Below, one piece after another: positions 5,428-17,685 of a DNA stretch of 64,000 bases (the first letter of the stretch is position 1; the number at the start of each line of letters is the position of its first letter). The notes under the pieces were generated by a model, which worked only from the letters and a program-made list of their open reading frames with translations, searched no databases and was not told the origin of the DNA. The DNA is from Fibrisoma limi BUZ 3. Its GTDB lineage: Bacteria; Bacteroidota; Bacteroidia; Cytophagales; Spirosomataceae. Position numbers and translations under genes: made by a program. The stretch spans positions 564,777-628,776 of the forward strand of contig NZ_CAIT01000006.1 in NCBI RefSeq assembly GCF_000296815.2, given 5' to 3'.

Positions 5428-5589
5428 GTCTTAGTTGGTGAAATGCTGTGCTCTGTCAGTTTTTGATCTGTAAACGAATTCTTAATACATGTTCTAATCA
5501 AGGATGATGGCTTTATAAGAAGTTATTGTCGCTAATGAGCAGTTATCGACGTTGTTAGAGGAATAGAATTACGCCAAGCTGAAACAAAA

Positions 5590-5630
5590 GCCAAATGGAA
5601 GTACAAATGTCGATTGTACTTCCATTTGGC
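5590..5630. terminator. Perfect 17-bp hairpin after the DUF1398 gene
   Basis: GCCAAATGGAAGTACAA (5590-5606) and its exact complement at 5614-5630 enclose a 7-base loop. It sits just 3' of the DUF1398 gene on the minus strand and marks the boundary between the AT-rich pair and the dehydrogenase. Confidence 0.7.
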
Positions 5631-5666
5631 CTCAATAACGTCAAACCCTAATGTTGTAAGCAGTTT

Positions 5667-6056
5667 TTACTGCGGTATTTGTTCAATCAAAATTTCATTT
5701 TCTGCTTTGTCGTAATAAGTACAGGTCATTTCGTTCATAGAGATTGCCCACTTTTCAATACCAAATGTTGCACACATGTTAATGAAAGTTAAGAAGTCCG
5801 TTTTGCCTTGTTGATGAGCAACCAGTTCTGCTTTAAATTCTTCACTTTTCAAGGTGTCAGCAATTACTAATGGGGCATACTTTGCAGGTGTTTTTGCTGT
5901 ATAGTTGTTAGCACCGTGATAGTCAATGTGTCCATCATTAACGTATGCTTCATAATGAGTAACACCTAACCTTTTGATTTCTTTTATGTAAGACGGGAAA
6001 TCAGCACCTGATTTTACTTTGCTGTGAGCCGCTTTGATTTGTTCTGCTGTAAACAT
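5667..6056 (-). CDS. DUF1398 family protein
   Basis: 129 residues. The start MFTAEQIKAAHSKVKSGADF and the central GVTHYEAYVNDGHIDYHG are characteristic of the DUF1398 family, whose members are sometimes labelled phage envelope protein without experimental support. No signal peptide or membrane segment is present, so a small cytosolic protein is expected. Codon use is clearly AT-richer than in the flanking genes and is shared with the AraC gene immediately upstream, suggesting joint acquisition. The two genes are 171 bases apart on the same strand, and DUF1398 may be the target of the regulator. Function unknown. Confidence 0.8.
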   Translation of the reverse strand: MFTAEQIKAAHSKVKSGADFPSYIKEIKRLGVTHYEAYVNDGHIDYHGANNYTAKTPAKYAPLVIADTLKSEEFKAELVAHQQGKTDFLTFINMCATFGIEKWAISMNEMTCTYYDKAENEILIEQIPQ

Positions 6057-7431: not shown

Positions 7432-8418
7432 TTATAAGCTTCCTTTCTTTATGCCCAAATCCGGTGAGGAGTAAATTTGTCCCTCGTCGGTAACCAGGAT
7501 GTACTGGTACTGCGGGTATTTCCTGATCAGTTTCAATCCGGCATCTTTGCCCAGCACCATCAGGGATGTGCTAAACCCGTTGGCCGTTTCGGCACTGGGG
7601 CCAAATACCGTTACGCTGCTTACGCCCGTGGCCGGATAGCCCGTTTTAGGGTTAATAATGTGGGCATACCGCTTGCCGTTGAACACGACGAATTTTTCGT
7701 AACTGCCAGACGTAACGACAGCGCTTTGGCGAAGGGGCACAACCGCCAGGAGTGTGTCTTTGCGGAGGGGATTGGTAATGCCGATAACCCAGTCACTGCC
7801 ATCAGGTTGTTTGCCCCAGGTGCTCATGTCGCCCGAACCGTTAACAATACCGGCCTTGATCCCGAGAGCCAGCATCATGTCGCGGCACCGGTCAGCGGCA
7901 TAACCCTCGCCGAGTGCGCCAAAACCGATTTTCATGCCTTTTTTCTTCAGAAAGATCGTGGAATGCGTCCGGTCCAGCACGATGTTCTGATAGCCGACTC
8001 GTTCCACCGATTTTTTTACCGCTTCCGGGCTGGGCATTTCCGTCATTGAGCCGTCGAATTTCCAGATCCGGTCCATGGCGGCAAAACTGATGTCGAAAGC
8101 GCCGTTCGTAAGCCGTGAGAAATGCAGTGCCCGCTCCGTAAGGGCAAACACTTCGGGATCAACCTGAACCGGAGCGATACCGGCGTTCTGGTTGACGCGC
8201 GAAATCTGGGTATCGCTTTTCCAGTCGGAGATAAGGTTTTCGATCCTGGTTACTTCGGCAATCATCATGTCGATATGGCGCTCGGCCGCCAGTGAATCGG
8301 CTGCGACAATGGTAATGTCGAATCGACTTCCCATCAATTTGACGGTACGTTTGCGCAGGACCTGGGCCGAGGTGTTAAATGCCGATACAATCAGTAAAAA
8401 GAGGAATATTTGTTTCAC
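7432..8418 (-). CDS. apbE: FAD:protein FMN transferase (ApbE)
   Basis: 328 residues with a signal peptide (residues 1-19, ending NTSAQ), so it acts outside the cytoplasm. ApbE cleaves FAD and esterifies the FMN half to Thr or Ser in target proteins. Family motifs seen: LMGSRFDITI near the N-terminus, FGALGEGYAADR, GIVNGSGDMSTWG, and HIINPKTGYPA. The normally conserved metal-binding Asp of the TADALST motif is Asn here (TANGFSTS). The start codon is GTG; no in-frame ATG gives a signal peptide. It is the last gene of a five-gene operon that also encodes a likely substrate (DUF2271) and the electron donor (PepSY reductase), 18 bases after the DUF3861 gene. Confidence 0.92.
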   Translation of the reverse strand: MKQIFLFLLIVSAFNTSAQVLRKRTVKLMGSRFDITIVAADSLAAERHIDMMIAEVTRIENLISDWKSDTQISRVNQNAGIAPVQVDPEVFALTERALHFSRLTNGAFDISFAAMDRIWKFDGSMTEMPSPEAVKKSVERVGYQNIVLDRTHSTIFLKKKGMKIGFGALGEGYAADRCRDMMLALGIKAGIVNGSGDMSTWGKQPDGSDWVIGITNPLRKDTLLAVVPLRQSAVVTSGSYEKFVVFNGKRYAHIINPKTGYPATGVSSVTVFGPSAETANGFSTSLMVLGKDAGLKLIRKYPQYQYILVTDEGQIYSSPDLGIKKGSL

Positions 8419-8436
8419 AACCGTAATAGCCAGGTC

Positions 8437-8730
8437 TTACATACGTTTCAGGCGCTTCATGAAGCTGCCGAAGGCGGGACCAAGTTCCTCAAACAGCGGA
8501 TGGTTACGATGCCTGATCATCACTTCACTGAATAGTTTTAAACCAAGCGCAAACTCGGTGGCTTGCGAAGGGTCACCAAACGGATCTTTAGCCCGAATCC
8601 TGTCAATAATGTCAAAGAGTTCATCGTGGTTCGTAAAATCGAACGCTAACGCCCTGGGTGGTTCGCTCTGACCGTTTGCATACTGTTGGAGCGTTAAGGT
8701 CAGATGATATGTATTGGTTTTCTTTTCCAT
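8437..8730 (-). CDS. DUF3861 family protein
   Basis: 97 residues from ATG at 8730. A longer frame starts at 8778, but the family begins close to MEKKTNTYHLTL. The conserved parts LAFDFTNHDELFDIIDRIRA and FALGLKLFSEVMIRHRNHPL match DUF3861. The protein is small, soluble and cytosolic, with no cysteines or metal-binding cluster. It is located between the PepSY reductase and apbE. A role in the flavin module is suggested only by operon position. Confidence 0.8.
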   Translation of the reverse strand: MEKKTNTYHLTLTLQQYANGQSEPPRALAFDFTNHDELFDIIDRIRAKDPFGDPSQATEFALGLKLFSEVMIRHRNHPLFEELGPAFGSFMKRLKRM

Positions 8731-8850
8731 GCTCTTGCTGGCTGCTATGCTCAAAAGACAAACGGCTTGCTCAGGCAAGGGTTTTGGTTTGAAGCCGAAT
8801 AGTGAGGTAGCATTTACTACGTGATGCCGCCGGAGACTGTAAACAAACCG

Positions 8851-11046
8851 CTAGTAACAGTCCATCAGAATCTGGCTGTGCGACTGATAATCGCTGACGG
8901 ACTTGCCCAATTTGGTCTGGCAGATGGTTTCCAGCAGTTCGAGGACATCCTTTTGCATGCCCAGCGATCCACAGATCATCAGTACGCCGTTCATTGCCAG
9001 TACATTGGCAATAAAGTCGGCGTCGCGGGTGAGCAGGTTACTAACGTACTGTTTGTCGCCTTCCCGTGAATAAGCCACGTGGAGGGTAGTAAGTTGCTGC
9101 GCGGACTGGCTTGCTTCCAGAAATTCCCGATACATAGTAAACGAGGCACGTTGCCGGAAACCGCAGTATAAATGACAGGGTATTTGCTGCTTGTTCTCGC
9201 TGATCATGCCTAAAAACGGAGCGATACCGGTGCCATTGGCAATCATGACCACCTCCGGCGCTTTTTGCGGGAAGTGGAAATGGTTGTTGCTGACAACCCG
9301 GGCCTGAATCGTTTGGCCGGGCGTTAGTTCGTGTAAAAAGCCAGAGCCAAACCCGCCAGGATGCAGCCGGACGCTGAGTTGAAGCTCATGGTCCAATACG
9401 CCAATGGAGTACAACCGTTCGCGGTGGTCGTTGGCTGGGTAGATGGCCAGCAAGTCGCCCGACGTAACGCCGTTTCTACGGTTGGCTCGCAACCGAACCA
9501 GAAACGTACCGTCTGGCTGTGCGGTGCGGGTGTTGTCCGTAACGGTTAGCGTATCAAGCTTGGGGGGCGGGGTTTTCAGCAAATCCGACGAAACCGACAT
9601 TGGTAGCTTGGTTTGCTGGGACCAGGCTTCGGCCCACAAACCAAACTCCTCCGGCGACTTGTCATTAACCGTATGAATATCCACCAGCGGAACCGCCCAG
9701 GATTGCCGGGACAGCAACTGATTTACCTCGAAGGCAAATTTACAGAAGTCGGGGTAGGCGTGTGACCCAAAACCAAGCACTGAATAGCGCACCGGTTGTG
9801 GCTGCGGGTATTGCTCAACCAGCGTGGCAAACCGTCTGGCATTGGTCGGCGCATCACCGAGGCCATACGTAGCAGTCAGCGCAATCAGGTGCTCTGCTTT
9901 CGGAAAAACAGTGTACTTGTTGAACTCGGTCAGGAAGGATTTTTCTCCCTGGTTGAGCAACTGCTGGTGAATGAGCTGGGCAAACCGGAAGGTACTGCCG
10001 TTCTCCGACCCGACCAGAATAATAAACCGGCTTTCGTCGGCTGAGTAGTTGTTTCTGACGCGATTGGCCCGTCGCTTCCACGTAATGGCAAAACCGGAAT
10101 AGATGAAAAAGAGGATGTTGCCCGCAGCCACAGCCAGAATGATGGCCCATAGAGCATTCGCCCGGCCCGTATGAAGGTCGAGACTTAAATTCGTCAGCAG
10201 GACGGCGGTTGGATACCGGTCGTCGCTGAGAATATCACCCGTAATCTGGTTGACCGTCAGTTCACGATCCTTGAGCTTCAGCGTGTAATAATCTTCGACA
10301 TCGTCCGAAAACGGAAACTCAATGCGCTGAACCTCCGACAGTCGGATGTCGTTAAACACCGCAAAGTCGGCCAGTTGCCGTTGTGGTTTTGACTGAATGG
10401 CGTCAAAATTGACCCTGGGCGAGATTTTCTCCGTATTGACCAAACCGAAGCGTTCCAGCGACAGATACGTCCCCGACAGCGCAATGACGAAGATCGGGAT
10501 CAGCGACAGCCGCCCCAGCACGACGTGATAGTATTGGGCAAAATTGTCCCGCACGATACGGGTAAAAAAACGCTTCAGGCCCCGTTGCCGCTGGATAATC
10601 AGCATGGTGCCGGAAACGGTGATCAATAGCAACAGAAACGCAGTTAGTCCGATGAAAAACCGACCGATTTCTTTCAGAAACAGCGAGCGGTGCAGGGCGG
10701 TGGCCCATTGGAAAAATTCGCTTTGTTCAGTAGGCTCTCCCAGGATTTTCCCCGTCTGCGGATCGACGTAAGCGGTTAGGTTTTTGCCGTTTTCGTCGCT
10801 CCCCTTAACCAGGACAAACTGGTTGGCATCGACGCTCAGCTCACTGATTTCAGCAATGTTTTTTTTCAGAACCGGCAGCGTCTGGGCCAGCGTAAGTTCA
10901 GAAAAGGTATCGACCCGGTACGGCTGCATTTTCTGCGATACGGGTTCGAACGCCAGAATAACGCCCGTAATCGATGCCAGGGCCAATAAAAGAAAAGAAG
11001 ATACAGCTAGGGCTAAGTGGCTGTATCTCCAAACAGAAATGGTCAT
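8851..11046 (-). CDS. PepSY-TM / flavodoxin / ferredoxin-NADP reductase fusion (NADPH-driven transmembrane reductase)
   Basis: 731 residues from ATG at 11046. A frame extending to 11130 would overlap the DUF2271 gene and lacks a sensible start. Residues 1-330 form a PepSY-associated transmembrane domain with four hydrophobic segments. Candidate heme-ligand histidines are in WRYSHL, ATALHRS, QYYHVVLG and LDLHTGRAN. Residues about 340-490 are a flavodoxin (VGSENGSTFRFAQ, ALTATYGLGDAP, LGFGSHAYPDFC). Residues about 515-731 are an FAD/NADPH reductase (ERLYSIG, MIANGTGIAPFLGM, ICGSLGMQKDV). The inferred route is NADPH to FAD to FMN to membrane heme, then to the periplasmic side. Its neighbours DUF2271 and ApbE suggest the acceptor is a covalently flavinylated exported protein. 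Confidence 0.88.
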   Translation of the reverse strand: MTISVWRYSHLALAVSSFLLLALASITGVILAFEPVSQKMQPYRVDTFSELTLAQTLPVLKKNIAEISELSVDANQFVLVKGSDENGKNLTAYVDPQTGKILGEPTEQSEFFQWATALHRSLFLKEIGRFFIGLTAFLLLLITVSGTMLIIQRQRGLKRFFTRIVRDNFAQYYHVVLGRLSLIPIFVIALSGTYLSLERFGLVNTEKISPRVNFDAIQSKPQRQLADFAVFNDIRLSEVQRIEFPFSDDVEDYYTLKLKDRELTVNQITGDILSDDRYPTAVLLTNLSLDLHTGRANALWAIILAVAAGNILFFIYSGFAITWKRRANRVRNNYSADESRFIILVGSENGSTFRFAQLIHQQLLNQGEKSFLTEFNKYTVFPKAEHLIALTATYGLGDAPTNARRFATLVEQYPQPQPVRYSVLGFGSHAYPDFCKFAFEVNQLLSRQSWAVPLVDIHTVNDKSPEEFGLWAEAWSQQTKLPMSVSSDLLKTPPPKLDTLTVTDNTRTAQPDGTFLVRLRANRRNGVTSGDLLAIYPANDHRERLYSIGVLDHELQLSVRLHPGGFGSGFLHELTPGQTIQARVVSNNHFHFPQKAPEVVMIANGTGIAPFLGMISENKQQIPCHLYCGFRQRASFTMYREFLEASQSAQQLTTLHVAYSREGDKQYVSNLLTRDADFIANVLAMNGVLMICGSLGMQKDVLELLETICQTKLGKSVSDYQSHSQILMDCY

Positions 11047-11074
11047 AGAGGTGGCCGCTGTTAAGAAGGGCAAC

Positions 11075-11578
11075 TCAGTTGCTCGTATTAGGGCTAAAAC
11101 GTACGTAGCGGATATACCCCGTACCTTCACTCTTGGCAGAAAGTGCCTCGGTCGTCAGCGGAATCTCCAGGTCTTTGACATGGTAGTTTTTGTCCTCCAC
11201 CGCACTTTCAAACCGCAGTTTGTAGTCCTTGTTAATCTTGGCGTTGTCGATGTCGAGCATTACAACGCTACGGTCGCCACCGGCCACCGAAGCCCCGGTG
11301 ATGGCACTGATGTTTGGCGTTTTTTTGCCCAAAGCCTTATGCCATTCCTTTACGTCCGGGTACCATTTTTTATCGGAACCCAATACGTACAGGGTTTTCT
11401 CGTAAGCGCCTTTCCCGTTGATCAGCGAAACTACAATATAGGCACCCTCGCCCATGTAGTTGGTCATCTGGATCATGCACTTGTACTGAGAGGTACCCGA
11501 TTGTTGGGCTATTGAAGCTGACGGACTGGCAAAAACCAAAGTCAGCATCAGTAAGCCGATTTTATGCAAACAAGACAT
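11075..11578 (-). CDS. Exported DUF2271 protein, probable flavinylation substrate
   Basis: 167 residues with a signal peptide (1-25, cleavage near SIAQQ). The DUF2271 core runs through WYPDVKEWHKALGKKT and RSVVMLDIDNAKINKDYKLR. The segment NISAITGASVAGG contains T94-G95-A96-S97, which resembles the D-x-x-[ST]-G-A-[TS] motif that ApbE modifies in NqrC and RnfG; here the leading Asp is Ser91. The modified residue would be Ser97. The stop of the ankyrin gene is only 2 bases upstream of this start, so the two are probably translated together. The inferred role is a periplasmic one-domain electron carrier reduced by the PepSY protein. Confidence 0.82.
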   Translation of the reverse strand: MSCLHKIGLLMLTLVFASPSASIAQQSGTSQYKCMIQMTNYMGEGAYIVVSLINGKGAYEKTLYVLGSDKKWYPDVKEWHKALGKKTPNISAITGASVAGGDRSVVMLDIDNAKINKDYKLRFESAVEDKNYHVKDLEIPLTTEALSAKSEGTGYIRYVRFSPNTSN

Positions 11579-11580
11579 AC

Positions 11581-13098
11581 TTATTTCAGGAAATTAAGCG
11601 AGATATTGCTTTTCGACAGCGTTTCGTTTTCACTGGCCAGATCGAAAGCGGTTTCTTTGAAGTTGGTCGGAATGTCTTTTTTGGCACCGATCGACAGCAG
11701 GTATTTCAGCATGGCATCGTCTTTCGAAATCATGGCTGCTTTGTGCAGGGCCGTAATGCCTTCTTTATTACGCGCATTTACGTCGATCTGGAGAGGTTCC
11801 AGCTTTTTCAGCAGCGTCAGATCGTTTTTGGCAACGGCTAAATGATACAACGTATTACCGTTTTTCTGCGGAGCCTTCACGTCAAGTCCTTTGTCCTGAA
11901 GCAGTTTCAGTTTCGCCGTAAAGTCGTCAGTTTGCGGGCCACCCTCCGGGCGCGGACCGCCTTCGCCCCGTGCTCCGCCCATGGCCGGATTGGACTGAAT
12001 CAGATACGCAGCCAGATTATCGCCAGTTTTGTCTGTTACACCAACGTCGGCTCCTTTGCTTAGCAGATAACTCACTACGTCGGGCGTATTGCCTTTTACG
12101 GCCATAGCCAGTGCCGTTACGCCTTTCTGGTTCGCCTGGTTAATGTTTTTCACCTTTGGGAGCAACAGGTCCAGTACGGTGATGTCCCGGTTCGATGCAG
12201 CCGCATTCATGAACACCGTATTGCCATCTTCATCGGCCTGATTGACGTCGACGCCTTTGCTCAGAAAATACTGTATAAGCTCATTCTGGCGGGGTCGGCG
12301 AACAATCGCATGAAGGGCGTTTTCGCCGTTCTTGTTGGTTACGGTCGGTTTCAGATTCAGGCTTTCCAGGTACTGGAACACTTCCGGCGAATTAGGGCCC
12401 CGGCGCGACCCCTGACTGGCCATGATGAACGCGTTGTCCTGTGCCGGTACGCCCTTCGCTACCAGGGCTTTCATCGTGTTGATGTTGCCGCCCCGAGCTG
12501 CGTAACTGAAGGCGTTGTTACCAGCGGCATCCGTGCTTTTCAAGTCCAGCCCCTTTGCGACAAAGTAATCGGTCAGCTTGAGGTCCTTGTCATTCGCGAT
12601 GGCCAGCAGCAGGGCGTTGGCACCATCATGGTTCAACTCTTTTTTGAGATCGGCCCCGTTCTTCAGGCACAGGTCATACACCTGCGTATTGGGCTGGCCA
12701 GTGGCTGCGGCAAAATTCAGGACAGTCATTCCGTGATTATCCTCCAGATTGGCTTTCGACCCTTTGCTGAGCAGATATTCCATCAGTTCCACGTTGCCCC
12801 GGTTAGCCGCCCAGTGTATGTAGATACGTCCGTCGTGGGTGAGCTTCGACACGTCGTTGCCCGGTTGCGCCAACAGGTATTTGACGGTTTCGGTGGGCGC
12901 ACCAGCGTTGATCGCCATAACGACCGGGTCAAATCCCATGGGGTTGAGCTGCGATGGGTTGCTGCCTTTCTCGACCTCCGCTTTAACCTGATTCACATCC
13001 GGCTTACTTTGCCAGAACGACTGATCCAGCAGTACGTTTTTCTGAGCCTGAGCCGAGAGCGCAAAGCCTACCAGAAGGACACTCAGTAATCTTTTCAT
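11581..13098 (-). CDS. Exported ankyrin-repeat protein
   Basis: 505 residues from ATG at 13098 (MKRLLSVLLVGFALSAQAQ). A frame extending to 13149 would bury the signal peptide. About a dozen ankyrin units follow, with repeated patterns such as DGRIYIHWAANRGNVELMEYL, GMTVLNFAAATGQ and EGITALHKAAMISKDDAMLK. A Gly/Pro-rich linker (about residue 385, GGARGEGGPRPEGGPQ) splits the solenoid. Ankyrin solenoids bind other proteins. Being the first gene of the flavin operon and exported, it may scaffold the periplasmic redox proteins, but nothing in the sequence shows this directly. Confidence 0.85.
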   Translation of the reverse strand: MKRLLSVLLVGFALSAQAQKNVLLDQSFWQSKPDVNQVKAEVEKGSNPSQLNPMGFDPVVMAINAGAPTETVKYLLAQPGNDVSKLTHDGRIYIHWAANRGNVELMEYLLSKGSKANLEDNHGMTVLNFAAATGQPNTQVYDLCLKNGADLKKELNHDGANALLLAIANDKDLKLTDYFVAKGLDLKSTDAAGNNAFSYAARGGNINTMKALVAKGVPAQDNAFIMASQGSRRGPNSPEVFQYLESLNLKPTVTNKNGENALHAIVRRPRQNELIQYFLSKGVDVNQADEDGNTVFMNAAASNRDITVLDLLLPKVKNINQANQKGVTALAMAVKGNTPDVVSYLLSKGADVGVTDKTGDNLAAYLIQSNPAMGGARGEGGPRPEGGPQTDDFTAKLKLLQDKGLDVKAPQKNGNTLYHLAVAKNDLTLLKKLEPLQIDVNARNKEGITALHKAAMISKDDAMLKYLLSIGAKKDIPTNFKETAFDLASENETLSKSNISLNFLK

Positions 13099-13473
13099 AA
13101 AACTATAGACAGACAAGATGGGTATGGGCAAACGTATGGACGTCGGCATGTGGATGCCGGGTTTACGTGAACTGACTGCAAAGCTAATAAGAATCAGTCT
13201 AAATAAGAATGAGTGGGCTTAAATTCCTCGCAGTTTCAAAGGATTTTAACGTGTAAACAGCACAAATCGGGGTGGTGGTGGATTCTCTGTTGCCGATGCA
13301 GGCGCCCTAGGAACCAATGCTTCAGGGTAATACGTATGGCTGTGTACCCATCGACTAATCGCATTCGGTATGCGAGTTTTGAACGCCCGGCGTAACGTAG
13401 AAATAGCTGATAGTTTACTTGTGTTGTGTAGGGCTGGCCTGTAAATTTCAGCCGTTTCCAACAATCAAGCGCC
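13099..13473. other. 375-base divergent intergenic region
   Basis: This region separates the divergent flavin operon (left, minus) and the cytochrome c gene (right, plus) and must carry both promoters. Three short frames (13213-13395 plus, 13236-13484 minus, 13246-13464 minus) overlap one another and show no protein-like composition, so none is called. Confidence 0.5.
13418..13449 (+). promoter_or_regulatory. Possible Bacteroidota-type promoter for the cytochrome c gene
   Basis: CTTG at 13418-13421, then 20 bases, then TAAATTTC at 13442-13449. The consensus for the primary sigma factor of this phylum is TTTG-N19-21-TAnnTTTG; this match has one mismatch in each box. Transcription would begin some 20 bases before the ATG at 13474. 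Confidence 0.45.
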
Positions 13474-13953
13474 ATGCTCCCCACTTCCTACATTCGCCCG
13501 TTGACAATGGCTTTAGCAAGCCTGATCGGGTTGGTTACTCTCTGTATCATATTGCTGCTTTCATCGGCGTTTTTGTACCCGGCCGAGAGCAGCCCCGCAG
13601 CAGTTACTCAACAGGCGGGCGGGCCGGCCAGCGCTGTAAAGCCGGTTGCGTTAACCGAGCAGCAGACAAAAGGAAAAGAATTGTTTACCAATAACTGTGC
13701 GCAATGCCATGCCGTAACGGAGGAGGTGGTTGTGGGGCCTGGTCTGAAAGGCGTAAAAGCGCGGACTCCCGGCGAAGCCTGGCTGATTAACTGGATACGT
13801 AATTCGCAGGCCGTTGTAGCCAGTGGTGATCCGTATGCGGTACAGGTCTATAATAAGTACAATAAGATTCCAATGTCGAACTTCCCGAACCTGACCGATG
13901 AGAACATCAAGGCTATACTGGCGTATGTCGATCCGGCCGGAGCCGCCAATTGA
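13474..13953 (+). CDS. Membrane-anchored or secreted class I cytochrome c
   Basis: 159 residues. Residues 12-36 form a hydrophobic segment acting as signal or anchor, followed by an Ala/Pro/Gly linker to about residue 60. The heme-binding motif is CAQCH at 75-79, and the axial Met is in KIPMSNFPN near residue 137. The C-terminal helix ENIKAILAYVD completes the fold. It probably carries electrons from periplasmic dehydrogenases to the oxidase. The next gene downstream, 219 bases away, is a dehydrogenase with its own cytochrome domain and may be a donor. Confidence 0.88.
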   Translation: MLPTSYIRPLTMALASLIGLVTLCIILLLSSAFLYPAESSPAAVTQQAGGPASAVKPVALTEQQTKGKELFTNNCAQCHAVTEEVVVGPGLKGVKARTPGEAWLINWIRNSQAVVASGDPYAVQVYNKYNKIPMSNFPNLTDENIKAILAYVDPAGAAN

Positions 13954-14172: not shown

Positions 14173-17100
14173 ATGATTCGGTTACCGTCGTCGACGAAAC
14201 CCTGGCTCCGATTGTTCCTGACCGTCGGCGCTACCGTTAGCCTATACGCCTGCCTGAGAACCCAGAACGCTAGCACACAAACCGCAGCCACCACTACATC
14301 GTCGGCGTCGGCAGCCCCGCGTCGGGTGCTGGTTTTCTCTAAAACAAAGGGCTACTTCCACGGGTCAATCCCGTATGGTATTGCGGCCATCCAGAAACTG
14401 GGACAGGAGAATAACTTTCGGGTCGATACGACTAAGAATGCCGCGTACTTCACCGACGACAGCCTGCGTAATTACGAGGCCGTTGTATTCCTGAGCACGA
14501 CCGGAAACGTACTGAATCCTGAGCAGCAGGCTGCTTTTGAGCGGTATATTCAGGCAGGAGGGGGCTACATGGGTATCCACGCGGCCGCCGATACCGAATA
14601 CGACTGGCCGTGGTATAATAAACTGGTAGGCGGCTATTTTGCCAGCCACCCCAGTAACCCGAACGTGCGGAAAGCCACCATCGACGTAACCGACAAAAAC
14701 CACCCGTCGACGGCTCACCTGCCCGACCGCTGGGAGCGTACCGACGAATGGTACAATTACCGCTCGTTTTATACCGACCTGAACGTACTGGCAAGCCTTG
14801 ACGAAAATACGTACGAAGGCGGCACCAACGGCAGCAATCACCCTATCGCGTGGTACCATGAATTCGACGGTGGCCGGGCGTTTTACACCGGTGGTGGCCA
14901 CGAAAATGCCAGTTACAGCGAACCGTTGTTTGTCAAGCACTTACTGGGTGGTCTCAACTACGTTATGGGCAAGGGCGAGCCGCTGAACTACCGGAAGGCG
15001 TATGCGGTGGTAATGCCCGAAGAAAACCGCTTCGTGAAGACCGTACTGGTCAACGACCTCAACGAGCCGATGGAACTGGCCATCGCCGACGAAGGGGGTG
15101 GCAATTCAGGACGCGTTTTCTTCACCGAACGGAGTGGTAATCTGTCGGTCTACGACCCGCGGACAAACCAAAGCAAAGTCATGCACAAATTCAGCGTAAC
15201 GACCAAGCAGGGCTTTGGTGTACAGGGTGTTACGGTCGATCCGAACTTTGCGACCAACCACTTTCTCTACCTGTATTATTCGCCAATGACCGACAAAAAT
15301 CCGGTCAATTATCACCTGTCCCGGTTTGTCGTCAACAACGATAACACGATCGATCTGGCTTCGGAAAAAGTACTTCTGAAGATTCCGCATGAGTTTGAAG
15401 CCAGCGCTCACCACGGCGGGTCGTTTGCCTGGGATAAAGAAGGCAATCTGTACCTCTCGACCGGCGATAATACGAACCCGTTCCCGTCTAACGGCTACGC
15501 ACCCATCGACGAACGCCCCGACCATCTGACGCTGGATGCGCAGCGTTCGGCGGCTAATACCAATGATTTACGCGGGAAAGTGCTCCGTATCAAACCTCAA
15601 CCGGACGGTACGTATACCATTCCGGACGGCAACCTTTTTCCGAAAGGTTTGGCGCAGACCCGGCCCGAAATCTACACCATGGGGCTGCGAAACCCGTACC
15701 GTATTGCCGTCAATCCAAGATCGTCGGTGTTGTACTGGGGCGAAATCGGGCCGGATGCCGGTAAAGACAGTACCATCGGGCCGCGGGGGTATGACGAGTT
15801 CAACCAGGCCAAAAAGCCGGGGAACCACGGTTGGCCGCTGTTCATCGGCAACAGCCAGCCCTATCCGGATCTGGATTTTGCCACCAACGTAGCCGGACCG
15901 ACGTTTGACCCTAAGGCACCCGTCAACAGTTCGGTGAATAATACCGGTCTGAAAAACCTGCCACAGGCTACGTCGGCCATGATCTGGTACCCCTACGCGG
16001 CTTCCAAAGAGTTTCCGGAGCTGGGTCAGGGTGGCCGAAGCGCCATGGCGGGTGCGTTCTATACGTACGACCGCAACTCAACGTCGAGGAGTAAGTTCCC
16101 GGAATACTACGACGGGGGGCTGTTTATCTTCGACTGGATGCGGAACTGGGTGGTAGTGGCCCGTTTCGATCAGAACGAGAACTACCTGCGCACGGAGCCG
16201 TTTATGGCCACAAACGGAGATTTTCGCCGGCCGATCGATCTGGCTTTCAGTAAAGACGGTGTGATGTACATGCTGGAATACGGCTCGGTCTACGGCGCTG
16301 ATAACGACGATGCCCGGCTGGTCAAAATTGAATACAATACGGGCAATCGGGCACCGGTAGCGCTCGCGGGTGTCGTTGATTCGGTGGCCGTTGCGCAATC
16401 GAGAGCCCGGGCTTATTTAACCTCAGACGGCCGGAATGTACCACCCATCAAGGAAGCCGTTGGGCAGGCTCCACTACGGGTAAGTTTCAGCGGTCGTGGT
16501 ACTGATCTGGACCAGGACGACAAACTGACGTACCAATGGCTGTTTGACGGCAAAACCGTAGGGGCGACAAAGCCCGGTGCAACGTACACCTACACTCAGC
16601 CGGGTGTTTACAACGCCATCCTGAAAGTGAGCGACCAGACCGGTCTGGTAGGCATGGATACGGTCGTCGTGAAGGTAGGTAACGCCAAACCGGAAGTCGC
16701 CATTACGTCGACCGGCAACAAATCGTTTTTCTGGGAAGGCAAGCCGTTTACGTACTCAGTGAAAGTAGCCGATAAAGAAGATGCGACGGTTGACCCGAAG
16801 CGCGTCAGGGTGTTTTATGCGTACAGCGCCCAGCCGGGCAATACGCCGGCCGCTCCGCAGCAGGGGCACCAGAATCTGGATGCTATCGGCAACGGTTCGC
16901 TTGGGAAAACACTCATCGCCAACAGCGACTGCAAAGCCTGTCACACCATCGACAAACCATCGGTCGGCCCGACGTTCCTGGCCGTAGCCAGTCGATACAA
17001 AGGCCAGCCGGGGATTACCGAGCGCCTGGCGAAAAAAATCATTGAGGGCGGGGGCGGAAGCTGGAGCAAAGACCATCTCATGAGTGCGCACCCGCAGATA

Positions 17101-17685
17101 CCGATGCAGGATGCGCAGGAGATGGTGAAGTATATCTTTTCGCTGACTGACGAGCAGAAGCAGGTGACCGTTCCACTCGAAGGTGCACTGGCCCTAAACG
17201 AGCACAAAGCTGAAGAACCCCGCGGTCAGTACACACTGGTGGCGACCTACACCGACAACGGCGGAAAGGTAGTCGGGCCGCTGACGGCCACGGATGTCGT
17301 AACACTCCGGAATGCAAAAGTTCGGGCGCTCGATGCTGATGCGTACGTTGGTTTCCCGCGCTGGGGCAACCGCCTGAGCGCCGGTGGGCATAAAGCGTAT
17401 CTGCTTTACAAAAACATCGACCTGACGTGCATCAAGTCCCTTACGTACGAGTATTCGTCGCTGAACAAAGACGGCGAGATTGAGCTGCGGCTCGATTCGT
17501 TTGCCGGGCCGGTAATTAGCCGGACACCCTACAGCGCCACGGGTGACTGGAAAAATACCCGGCAGGTGACGGGTGAACTGGAGAAACCCATCTTGGGAAA
17601 GCATGACATTTATATTGTGGTGGTTAAACGGACCCCGCCGACGAATGAAATCATCCAGCTCAATACCGTTCTCTTCAATCAGTAA
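14173..17685 (+). CDS. ThuA / PQQ-type sugar dehydrogenase / PKD / cytochrome c multidomain lipoprotein
   Basis: 1170 residues. A lipobox (VSLYAC, Cys27) predicts a lipoprotein. Residues about 50-265 form a ThuA-like glutamine-amidotransferase-fold domain (VLVFSKTKGYFHGSIPYGI, GGGYMGIHAAADTEYDWPWY). About 275-725 is a six-bladed sugar dehydrogenase propeller of the soluble glucose dehydrogenase type (GVQGVTVDPNF, HHGGSFAWDKEGNLYLSTGD, MGLRNPYRIA). About 755-850 is a PKD domain. About 905-1010 is a cytochrome c domain with CKACH and the axial Met of HPQIPMQDAQ. The last 130 residues look like a carbohydrate-binding module. It probably oxidises a sugar or polyol at the cell surface and passes electrons through its own heme. 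L-rhamnose mutarotase follows 9 bases later. Confidence 0.9.
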   Translation: MIRLPSSTKPWLRLFLTVGATVSLYACLRTQNASTQTAATTTSSASAAPRRVLVFSKTKGYFHGSIPYGIAAIQKLGQENNFRVDTTKNAAYFTDDSLRNYEAVVFLSTTGNVLNPEQQAAFERYIQAGGGYMGIHAAADTEYDWPWYNKLVGGYFASHPSNPNVRKATIDVTDKNHPSTAHLPDRWERTDEWYNYRSFYTDLNVLASLDENTYEGGTNGSNHPIAWYHEFDGGRAFYTGGGHENASYSEPLFVKHLLGGLNYVMGKGEPLNYRKAYAVVMPEENRFVKTVLVNDLNEPMELAIADEGGGNSGRVFFTERSGNLSVYDPRTNQSKVMHKFSVTTKQGFGVQGVTVDPNFATNHFLYLYYSPMTDKNPVNYHLSRFVVNNDNTIDLASEKVLLKIPHEFEASAHHGGSFAWDKEGNLYLSTGDNTNPFPSNGYAPIDERPDHLTLDAQRSAANTNDLRGKVLRIKPQPDGTYTIPDGNLFPKGLAQTRPEIYTMGLRNPYRIAVNPRSSVLYWGEIGPDAGKDSTIGPRGYDEFNQAKKPGNHGWPLFIGNSQPYPDLDFATNVAGPTFDPKAPVNSSVNNTGLKNLPQATSAMIWYPYAASKEFPELGQGGRSAMAGAFYTYDRNSTSRSKFPEYYDGGLFIFDWMRNWVVVARFDQNENYLRTEPFMATNGDFRRPIDLAFSKDGVMYMLEYGSVYGADNDDARLVKIEYNTGNRAPVALAGVVDSVAVAQSRARAYLTSDGRNVPPIKEAVGQAPLRVSFSGRGTDLDQDDKLTYQWLFDGKTVGATKPGATYTYTQPGVYNAILKVSDQTGLVGMDTVVVKVGNAKPEVAITSTGNKSFFWEGKPFTYSVKVADKEDATVDPKRVRVFYAYSAQPGNTPAAPQQGHQNLDAIGNGSLGKTLIANSDCKACHTIDKPSVGPTFLAVASRYKGQPGITERLAKKIIEGGGGSWSKDHLMSAHPQIPMQDAQEMVKYIFSLTDEQKQVTVPLEGALALNEHKAEEPRGQYTLVATYTDNGGKVVGPLTATDVVTLRNAKVRALDADAYVGFPRWGNRLSAGGHKAYLLYKNIDLTCIKSLTYEYSSLNKDGEIELRLDSFAGPVISRTPYSATGDWKNTRQVTGELEKPILGKHDIYIVVVKRTPPTNEIIQLNTVLFNQ

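What the first reader, a model, noticed from the sequence alone, without database searches (positions are those of the whole stretch)
7432..13098. Five-gene flavin-export operon: ankyrin, DUF2271, PepSY-flavodoxin-reductase, DUF3861, ApbE
One operon encodes an NADPH-driven membrane reductase, an exported candidate flavoprotein, the transferase that attaches FMN covalently, and two proteins of unknown role. Seen directly: gene order, tight spacing and domains. Known: ApbE flavinylates exported proteins; PepSY-TM proteins carry electrons across membranes. Inferred: electrons leave cytosolic NADPH, cross via hemes and reduce a flavinylated DUF2271 protein for use outside the membrane (for example metal or quinone reduction).
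Basis: partly seen in the sequence, partly recalled or inferred. Interest (0 to 1): 0.72.

Follow-up and report, generated by a model that had tools for sequence, protein, structure and literature searches.

The report
Iron-starvation electron-export operon with ankyrin
These genes most likely build a known kind of machine that carries electrons from inside the cell to a flavin protein outside the inner membrane, probably to free iron when it is scarce; what looks new is an exported ankyrin-repeat protein that keeps company with it in these bacteria.

Summary
The electron-export idea is right in outline but already published: Meheust et al. 2021 (passages) showed ApbE flavinylates a DUF2271 protein and described PepSY-like/DUF2271/ApbE clusters. 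'Flavin export' is a misnomer, and the five-gene set is not conserved.

The conserved unit is three genes: ankyrin, DUF2271, PepSY-diflavin reductase. Ankyrin precedes 73 of 77 stand-alone DUF2271 places; 71 of those 73 also have the reductase. DUF3861 is in 0 of 73; ApbE is downstream in 49 of 73, same direction in 23.

Of 392 genomes of the phylum, full-length ankyrin matches and ordinary stand-alone DUF2271 occur in the same 32.

A Fur-box-like repeat precedes the operon (window 13184-13206). The only two other sites with at most 2 mismatches in this genome precede feoAB and a TonB receptor/PepSY pair. Published Riemerella data show an operon of matching annotation induced by iron starvation.

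Best reading: an iron-regulated NADPH-to-periplasm electron conduit reducing ferric iron. New: the ankyrin partner, not mentioned in the two flavinylation papers searched. Its role is inferred.

The parts
13184..13206 (.). Fur-box-like inverted repeat (operator candidate)
   Evidence: 18 of 21 consensus positions; 1 mismatch in the genome scan (G000:C9:577960-577982); conserved upstream of relatives
13179..13186 (-). TAGCTTTG, fits the TAnnTTTG promoter element recalled for Bacteroidota; overlaps the box
11581..13098 (-). ankyrin-repeat protein, 505 aa, N-terminus signal-like by eye
   Evidence: Pfam; alignment of 26; solenoid model pLDDT 90.7
11075..11578 (-). DUF2271 protein, 167 aa, candidate flavinylated electron carrier
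   Evidence: Pfam; alignment of 29
11288..11299 (-). TGAS, residues 94-97 of DUF2271, ApbE target motif [S/T]GA[S/T]
   Evidence: sequence; motif in 71 of 73 relatives
8851..11046 (-). PepSY_TM-flavodoxin-FAD/NADPH reductase, 731 aa; invariant H10, H119, H174, H292
   Evidence: Pfam; alignment of 24; FoxB profile match; Foldseek
8437..8730 (-). DUF3861 protein, 97 aa; local insertion, not part of the conserved unit
   Evidence: Pfam; absent from 73 of 73 related loci
7432..8418 (-). ApbE FAD:protein FMN transferase, 328 aa, GTG start, signal-like N-terminus
   Evidence: Pfam; hydrophobic segment 3-22

Best explanation
An iron-starvation-induced electron conduit. Cytosolic NADPH gives electrons to FAD, then FMN, in the reductase part of the PepSY protein; they pass two b-type hemes held by four histidines in the membrane part and reduce FMN that ApbE has attached to the periplasmic DUF2271 protein. 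Reduced DUF2271 then reduces ferric iron, probably siderophore-bound iron brought in by TonB receptors, so that FeoB can import Fe(II). The exported ankyrin solenoid is proposed to hold DUF2271 near the PepSY protein or near incoming ferric complexes. Shown here: gene order, domains, conserved cofactor residues, strict co-occurrence, a box shared with feoAB. Inferred: heme, covalent FMN on this protein, electron direction, substrate, the ankyrin's place and role, and which regulator binds the box.
For: Domains; four invariant His in 24 relatives; profile match to FoxB 7abw; P450-reductase/NOS-like diflavin part by sequence and fold; [ST]GA[ST] in 71 of 73. Iron: box upstream of ankyrin genes, 51 of 74 regions with at least 17/21 (counted from the table); the other two sites with at most 2 mismatches in the genome precede feoA-feoB and a TonB receptor + PepSY gene; box at least 17/21 upstream of 23 of 30 FeoB_N loci against 2 of 900 shuffles; a TonB-receptor-like family in 25 of 73 loci, 19 of its 29 ORFs upstream on the same strand (one member tested by Pfam). 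Papers, passages only: Riemerella Fur box ATTTAGAATTATTCTAAAT (PMC5609570); CH-1 genes B739_0173-0177 (TonB receptor, hypothetical, 'Ankyrin', 'Predicted periplasmic protein', 'Nitric oxide synthase') up at log2 3.31, 3.64, 2.41, 3.06, 1.05 with dipyridyl (PMC5429918); Fur binds and represses the B739_0173 promoter (PMC7976709); Caulobacter PepSY/DUF2271/DUF4198 genes rise with iron shortage and support fitness under EDTA (PMC12004947).
Against: No biochemical test. In Riemerella RA-YM the genes named 'nitric oxide synthase' and ApbE stay iron-induced without Fur (ratios 3.73 and 3.37 in delta-fur), so Fur may not be the only regulator; and PMC7976709 quotes the classical GATAAT-type box, not ATTTAGA. 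14 of 74 upstream regions score below 15/21, and for a few loci single shuffles reach 17-19. The window operon has a cytochrome c gene, not a TonB receptor, beside it. Identity of the Riemerella genes with this triad rests on annotation and order; I did not read that genome. The FoxB match is weak (E 0.0041; best domain 0.067). 24 of 73 loci show no ApbE nearby.
Confidence: 0.66

Rival explanations
1. Same electron conduit, other final acceptor: it feeds a periplasmic or outer-membrane process other than iron assimilation, such as quinone, copper or thiol/methionine-sulfoxide reduction; iron control only reflects heme or flavin economy.
For: No substrate has been shown. The published systems use covalent flavins for several ends (PMC8238504 abstract and passages). 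The window operon has no TonB receptor beside it.
Against: The box is shared with feoAB and with a TonB receptor/PepSY pair; iron-starvation induction in Riemerella; TonB-receptor-like genes in 25 of 73 loci.
Confidence: 0.2
2. The ankyrin protein is not part of the electron path or its scaffold but a maturation factor or chaperone for DUF2271 or ApbE, or a peroxide-protection partner as suggested for periplasmic ankyrin proteins beside catalases (recalled).
For: It is always directly upstream of DUF2271 (median gap 5 bp), which fits co-production; ankyrin folds bind proteins (one search matches are binding scaffolds); it has no cofactor motif that I recognised in the alignment.
Against: Proteobacterial DUF2271 proteins are flavinylated without it (A. 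ursilacus, passages), so maturation needs no ankyrin there; no catalase gene was among the neighbour groups listed (names by eye, few tested by Pfam).
Confidence: 0.3
3. Ordinary five-gene operon, DUF3861 and ApbE included as working parts.
For: Order, strand and spacing in this window.
Against: DUF3861 in 0 of 73 relatives; ApbE reversed in 26 and not seen in 24 of 73.
Confidence: 0.05

Closest known systems
PepSY-like flavinylation system (Meheust et al. 2021, PMC8238504, passages)
   Same: PF03929 membrane protein with NAD-binding domain, DUF2271 with [S/T]GA[S/T], ApbE; proposed role in iron reduction
   Different: Here an exported ankyrin protein sits upstream; 'ankyrin' and 'DUF3861' occur 0 times in that main text (its supplementary tables were not read). 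No DUF4198 among the nine window proteins scanned
FoxB (PDB 7abw) and HiuB, PepSY ferrisiderophore reductases
   Same: PepSY membrane heme protein with an iron function (PMC12424826 and PMC11334425 passages); weak profile match that aligns H10 and H119
   Different: 7abw is 382 aa, against 731 aa here with a fused flavodoxin/FAD/NADPH part
Caulobacter CCNA_03155-03159
   Same: flavin-dependent reductase, PepSY protein and DUF2271 protein; iron-linked (PMC12004947 passages)
   Different: carries a DUF4198 protein; no ankyrin named in the passages seen
Riemerella anatipestifer B739_0173-0177
   Same: same order by annotation, induced by iron starvation (PMC5429918 passages)
   Different: headed by a TonB receptor; reductase annotated 'nitric oxide synthase'; not treated as one system in the passages I saw
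ApbE-DUF2271 fusion loci in the same bacterial phylum
   Same: flavinylation enzyme and substrate with a PepSY-type membrane neighbour
   Different: neighbour is a 222-aa PepSY_TM_like_2-type protein (23 of 23 by clustering, one tested by Pfam); no hit to this ankyrin or this reductase

Membership tests
PepSY-like flavinylation system | PepSY-like (PF03929 or PF16357) protein encoded in a flavinylation-associated cluster | tested here: met
   PepSY_TM 129.5 bits against 28.8, beside DUF2271 and ApbE
PepSY-like flavinylation system | DUF2271 substrate with [S/T]GA[S/T] | tested here: met
   TGAS at residues 94-97; motif in 71 of 73 relatives, VGET in L135 and L156
PepSY-like flavinylation system | NAD-binding domain PF00175 (the NAD(P)H-linked subset) | tested here: met
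   NAD_binding_1 41.8 bits against 22
PepSY-like flavinylation system | covalent FMN on DUF2271 | not testable with these tools
   needs UV gel or mass spectrometry
PepSY-like flavinylation system | DUF4198 neighbour (frequent, 1500 of 3220 clusters, not required) | tested here: not met
   none of nine window proteins scanned; relatives not scanned systematically
FoxB-type heme reductase | two hemes, each held by two conserved histidines | tested here: inconclusive
   exactly four invariant His in 24 rows, in or just before four hydrophobic segments; heme not shown; 7abw match weak
NADPH diflavin reductase (P450 reductase/NOS/CysJ type) | flavodoxin part followed by FAD/NAD(P)H part | tested here: met
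   Pfam; best sequence and fold matches are NOS and P450 reductases; invariant R544, Y546, S547 and S660 (cofactor meaning recalled)
Fur regulon | operator shared with known iron genes | tested here: met
   agrees with the published Riemerella RA-YM box
Fur regulon | Fur binds and represses this operon | not testable with these tools
   shown in print only for the TonB receptor gene B739_0173 of Riemerella CH-1; RA-YM data disagree in part

The most novel reading that the evidence does not exclude
An exported ankyrin-repeat protein is an obligate structural subunit of a Bacteroidota ferric (siderophore) reductase: a scaffold that positions a covalent-flavin carrier between an NADPH-driven heme conduit and incoming ferric complexes, i.e. 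a scaffolded periplasmic electron-transfer chain.
Probability: 0.35. Interest if true: 0.66.

Novelty: new variant of a known kind. Interest (0 to 1): 0.5.

Why it matters
Covalent-flavin electron export is widespread, but its partners outside the inner membrane are poorly known. A one-to-one link between an ankyrin protein and the DUF2271/PepSY-diflavin pair gives a concrete subunit to test, and the iron box gives the physiological setting. It would explain genes labelled 'Ankyrin', 'Predicted periplasmic protein' and 'Nitric oxide synthase' in an iron-starvation data set as one ferric-reduction system, and suggests how these bacteria supply Fe(II) to FeoB.

Tried and rejected
Rejected: the five-gene unit (DUF3861 0 of 73). 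Uninformative: DUF2271 against solved structures (monellin matches at E 0.25 or worse); DUF3861 matches 3cjl, a 'Domain of unknown function'; ankyrin fold search (DARPins and ankyrins).

Superseded: one search looked on the wrong side of minus-strand feoB loci (9 of 30); one search replaces it (23 of 30). One search failed on a missing file and was rerun without it. The ApbE pattern matched none of 49 and was replaced. A protein group near 10 of 73 loci that I took for DUF4374 had no Pfam match in its one tested member; I do not use that name. In one search the stand-alone DUF2271 profile found only 7 of the 23 fusion ORFs; one search then checked that the Pfam DUF2271 place lies inside the ApbE-matching ORF in 23 of 23.

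Limits: the box consensus was read from the upstream regions it was first scored on, so and the published box are the independent tests. One search saw 30 of the 39 FeoB_N places; four of the 30 (L171-L174) are short FeoB-like ORFs scoring 12-13, and of the other 26, three miss (L182 16, L187 16, L199 13). Related genomes are not independent events. In one search at most 3 candidates per genome were scored. The 32 = 32 match was made by comparing the lists by eye; set aside were 4 fusion-only genomes, the divergent G458, and partial matches in G395 and G488; G418 matches in two pieces; G372 has ankyrin and DUF2271 on different contigs. The P values printed rest on those hand-made tables. ApbE was counted above 150 bits in the fetched stretch only. 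Signal peptides were judged by eye; the hydrophobicity scan passed its threshold for ApbE but not for ankyrin or DUF2271.
Full report
WHAT IS THERE. The five genes lie on the minus strand as described and the named Pfam domains are well above cut-off. Aligned relatives place the ankyrin start at 13098 and the PepSY start at 11046. Ankyrin, DUF2271 and ApbE begin with signal-like stretches by eye; no predictor was run, and a hydrophobicity scan passed its threshold only for ApbE among these three.

Flavinylation of a DUF2271 protein by its ApbE was shown by experiment in 2021, and the same paper describes 3220 PepSY-like clusters, 2833 with DUF2271, and 1077 PepSY-like genes with a NAD-binding domain, with a proposed role in iron reduction (PMC8238504, passages). 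The central interpretation is therefore known. A later paper models DUF2271 and discusses PepSY heme proteins (PMC11334425, passages). Neither main text holds 'ankyrin' or 'DUF3861' (supplements not read). Two searches pairing ankyrin with DUF2271, PepSY, flavinylation or TonB listed no title on such a link (20 of 31 and 6 of 7 records shown; open-licence papers only). The iron induction of a gene named 'Ankyrin' is in print (PMC5429918), in a table.

WHAT IS CONSERVED. DUF2271 was found in 60 of 121 genomes of the family and above the cut-off in 37 of 392 of the phylum. I fetched 100 stretches around the matches outside this genome. In 23 the DUF2271 place lies inside an ApbE-matching ORF: a fusion class. 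The other 77 are stand-alone. In 73 of the 77 the ankyrin gene is directly upstream on the same strand, and 71 of these 73 have the PepSY-diflavin gene on the same strand too. The four exceptions are L070 (one open frame joining an ankyrin N-part to DUF2271), L152 (second copy in a genome with a full triad), L153 (contig begins 117 bases before DUF2271; that genome's ankyrin genes end at the start of another contig) and L161 (divergent). The ankyrin-DUF2271 gap has a median of 5 bp (63 of 73 at most 100 bp). DUF3861 is in 0 of 73. ApbE (above 150 bits) is downstream in the same direction in 23, reversed in 26, not seen in 24. All 12 named loci found with the ankyrin protein also have DUF2271, PepSY and ApbE in that order, ApbE reversed in 11, DUF3861 in none: four Spirosoma, two Dyadobacter, three Pedobacter, Arsenicibacter, Mucilaginibacter and Hufsiella.

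RECIPROCAL TEST. In 28 chosen genomes, ankyrin and PepSY-diflavin profiles (E at most 1e-30) each hit 9 of 9 with stand-alone DUF2271 and 0 of 19 others (17 without DUF2271, 2 with fusions only). Over 392 genomes of the phylum, full-length ankyrin matches occur in 32, the same 32 that have ordinary stand-alone DUF2271; G458 has a divergent DUF2271 without it, and 359 have neither kind (compared by eye; G395 and G488 show partial repeat matches only). One genome of the window's own genus, G018, lacks all three, so the unit comes and goes together. A Spirosoma oryzicola plasmid carries the triad with a divergent TonB receptor annotated for siderophore transport. I opened 4 of the 96 other plasmid records with a DUF2271 match; none of the 4 has an annotated ankyrin near DUF2271-PepSY. 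A plasmid-wide search with the ankyrin protein matched only the Spirosoma plasmid closely (82.6% identity; the other 10 records below 60%).

COFACTORS. Exactly four histidines are invariant in 24 PepSY proteins: H10, H119, H174, H292, in or just before the hydrophobic segments 8-37, 122-142, 172-195 and 296-322 (a fifth, 678-697, lies in the NAD part). With the N-terminus inside, H10/H174 would lie on the cytosolic side and H119/H292 on the periplasmic side, as two hemes require (inference). The membrane part matches FoxB 7abw weakly (E 0.0041). The C-terminal part matches NOS and P450 reductases by sequence and fold (model pLDDT 86.3, pTM 0.59). [ST]GA[ST] is kept in 71 of 73 DUF2271; L135 and L156 read VGET, as does L152. 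The ankyrin model is a confident solenoid (pLDDT 90.7, pTM 0.82).

IRON BOX. Upstream of the ankyrin genes lies an inverted repeat, consensus TTATTTAGAnTnATTCTAAATAA. Of 74 upstream regions (73 loci plus the window) 51 have at least 17 of 21 positions and 60 at least 15; shuffles average 12-14.5 and reach 17-19 in a few loci. The window site, 13184-13206, has 18 of 21. A whole-genome scan with a related pattern gave five places with up to 3 mismatches (reversed-pattern control: one). The three with at most 2 mismatches precede this operon, feoA-feoB, and a TonB receptor followed by a PepSY protein (FeoA named by eye). The two weaker ones lie near a cytochrome c gene and a FecR gene. Of 30 FeoB_N loci of the family, 23 have the box within 600 bp upstream, against 2 of 900 shuffles and 0 of 30 stretches inside the gene; of the 26 that are full-length FeoB it is 23. 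The published Riemerella RA-YM Fur box is ATTTAGAATTATTCTAAAT, with gel shifts on four promoters (PMC5609570, passages). A TAnnTTTG element lies near 34 of 57 boxes against 173 of 1140 random windows. The genome holds two Fur-family genes.

PUBLISHED EXPRESSION. In Riemerella anatipestifer CH-1 five consecutive genes annotated TonB receptor, hypothetical, Ankyrin, Predicted periplasmic protein and Nitric oxide synthase rise under dipyridyl (PMC5429918, passages). Order and names fit this triad: Pfam calls DUF2271 'Predicted periplasmic protein', and NOS is the best solved-structure match of the window's PepSY protein. Fur represses the first gene and binds its promoter (PMC7976709, passages), though that paper quotes a GATAAT-type box. 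Against a simple Fur model, in strain RA-YM genes of matching annotation, ApbE included, are iron-induced also without Fur (PMC5609570).

VERDICT. Best reading: an iron-regulated NADPH-to-periplasm electron conduit for ferric reduction, a Bacteroidota variant of the PepSY-like flavinylation system marked by an ankyrin partner. The class is known; the ankyrin link and the box evidence are what this work adds. What the ankyrin protein does is the open question.

Noticed in passing
L070:6129-7025: One open frame joins an ankyrin N-part to DUF2271 (draft genome G023, 78% complete); a FUR-like ORF lies upstream at 5432-5752 (22.0 bits, just under the cut-off of 23.1). May be a remnant, a recombination product or an assembly error.
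   Followed up: partly
23 fusion loci (L044, L051, L052 and others): ApbE-DUF2271 fusions form a second class: 23 of 23 lie near a 222-aa PepSY_TM_like_2-type protein (clustering, one member tested by Pfam) and 9 of 23 near a TonB-receptor-type protein (one tested).
   Followed up: partly
DUF2271 of L135, L152, L156: The flavinylation motif reads VGET instead of [ST]GA[ST], and no ApbE was seen nearby: possible loss or change of covalent FMN.
   Followed up: no
window 7432-8418 and ApbE of triad loci: The window ApbE and 48 of 49 ApbE rows of triad loci read GFGALGEG, GFGSIGKG or GFGATGKG (one row has a gap) where the 28 other ApbE rows read forms such as LDLGGIAKG or LRLHSFAKS: a distinct ApbE subfamily.
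   Followed up: partly
G372 contigs C87 and C129: Two tandem ankyrin copies (one with a TGA inside) end at the start of one contig, and DUF2271-PepSY begins at the start of another: probably one locus cut by the assembly.
   Followed up: partly
L213 (NZ_CP089541.1): Spirosoma oryzicola carries the triad on a 219-kb plasmid, with a divergent siderophore-type TonB receptor and a reversed ApbE about 1.6 kb beyond PepSY.
   Followed up: yes
window 13474-13953 and 14173-17685: Neighbours on the plus strand: a cytochrome c and a 1170-aa protein that by eye joins ThuA-like, sugar-dehydrogenase-like and CxxCH parts (not scanned).
   Followed up: no
L169:2996 and L170:2974: Weaker boxes (3 mismatches) near a cytochrome c gene and a FecR gene.
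   Followed up: no
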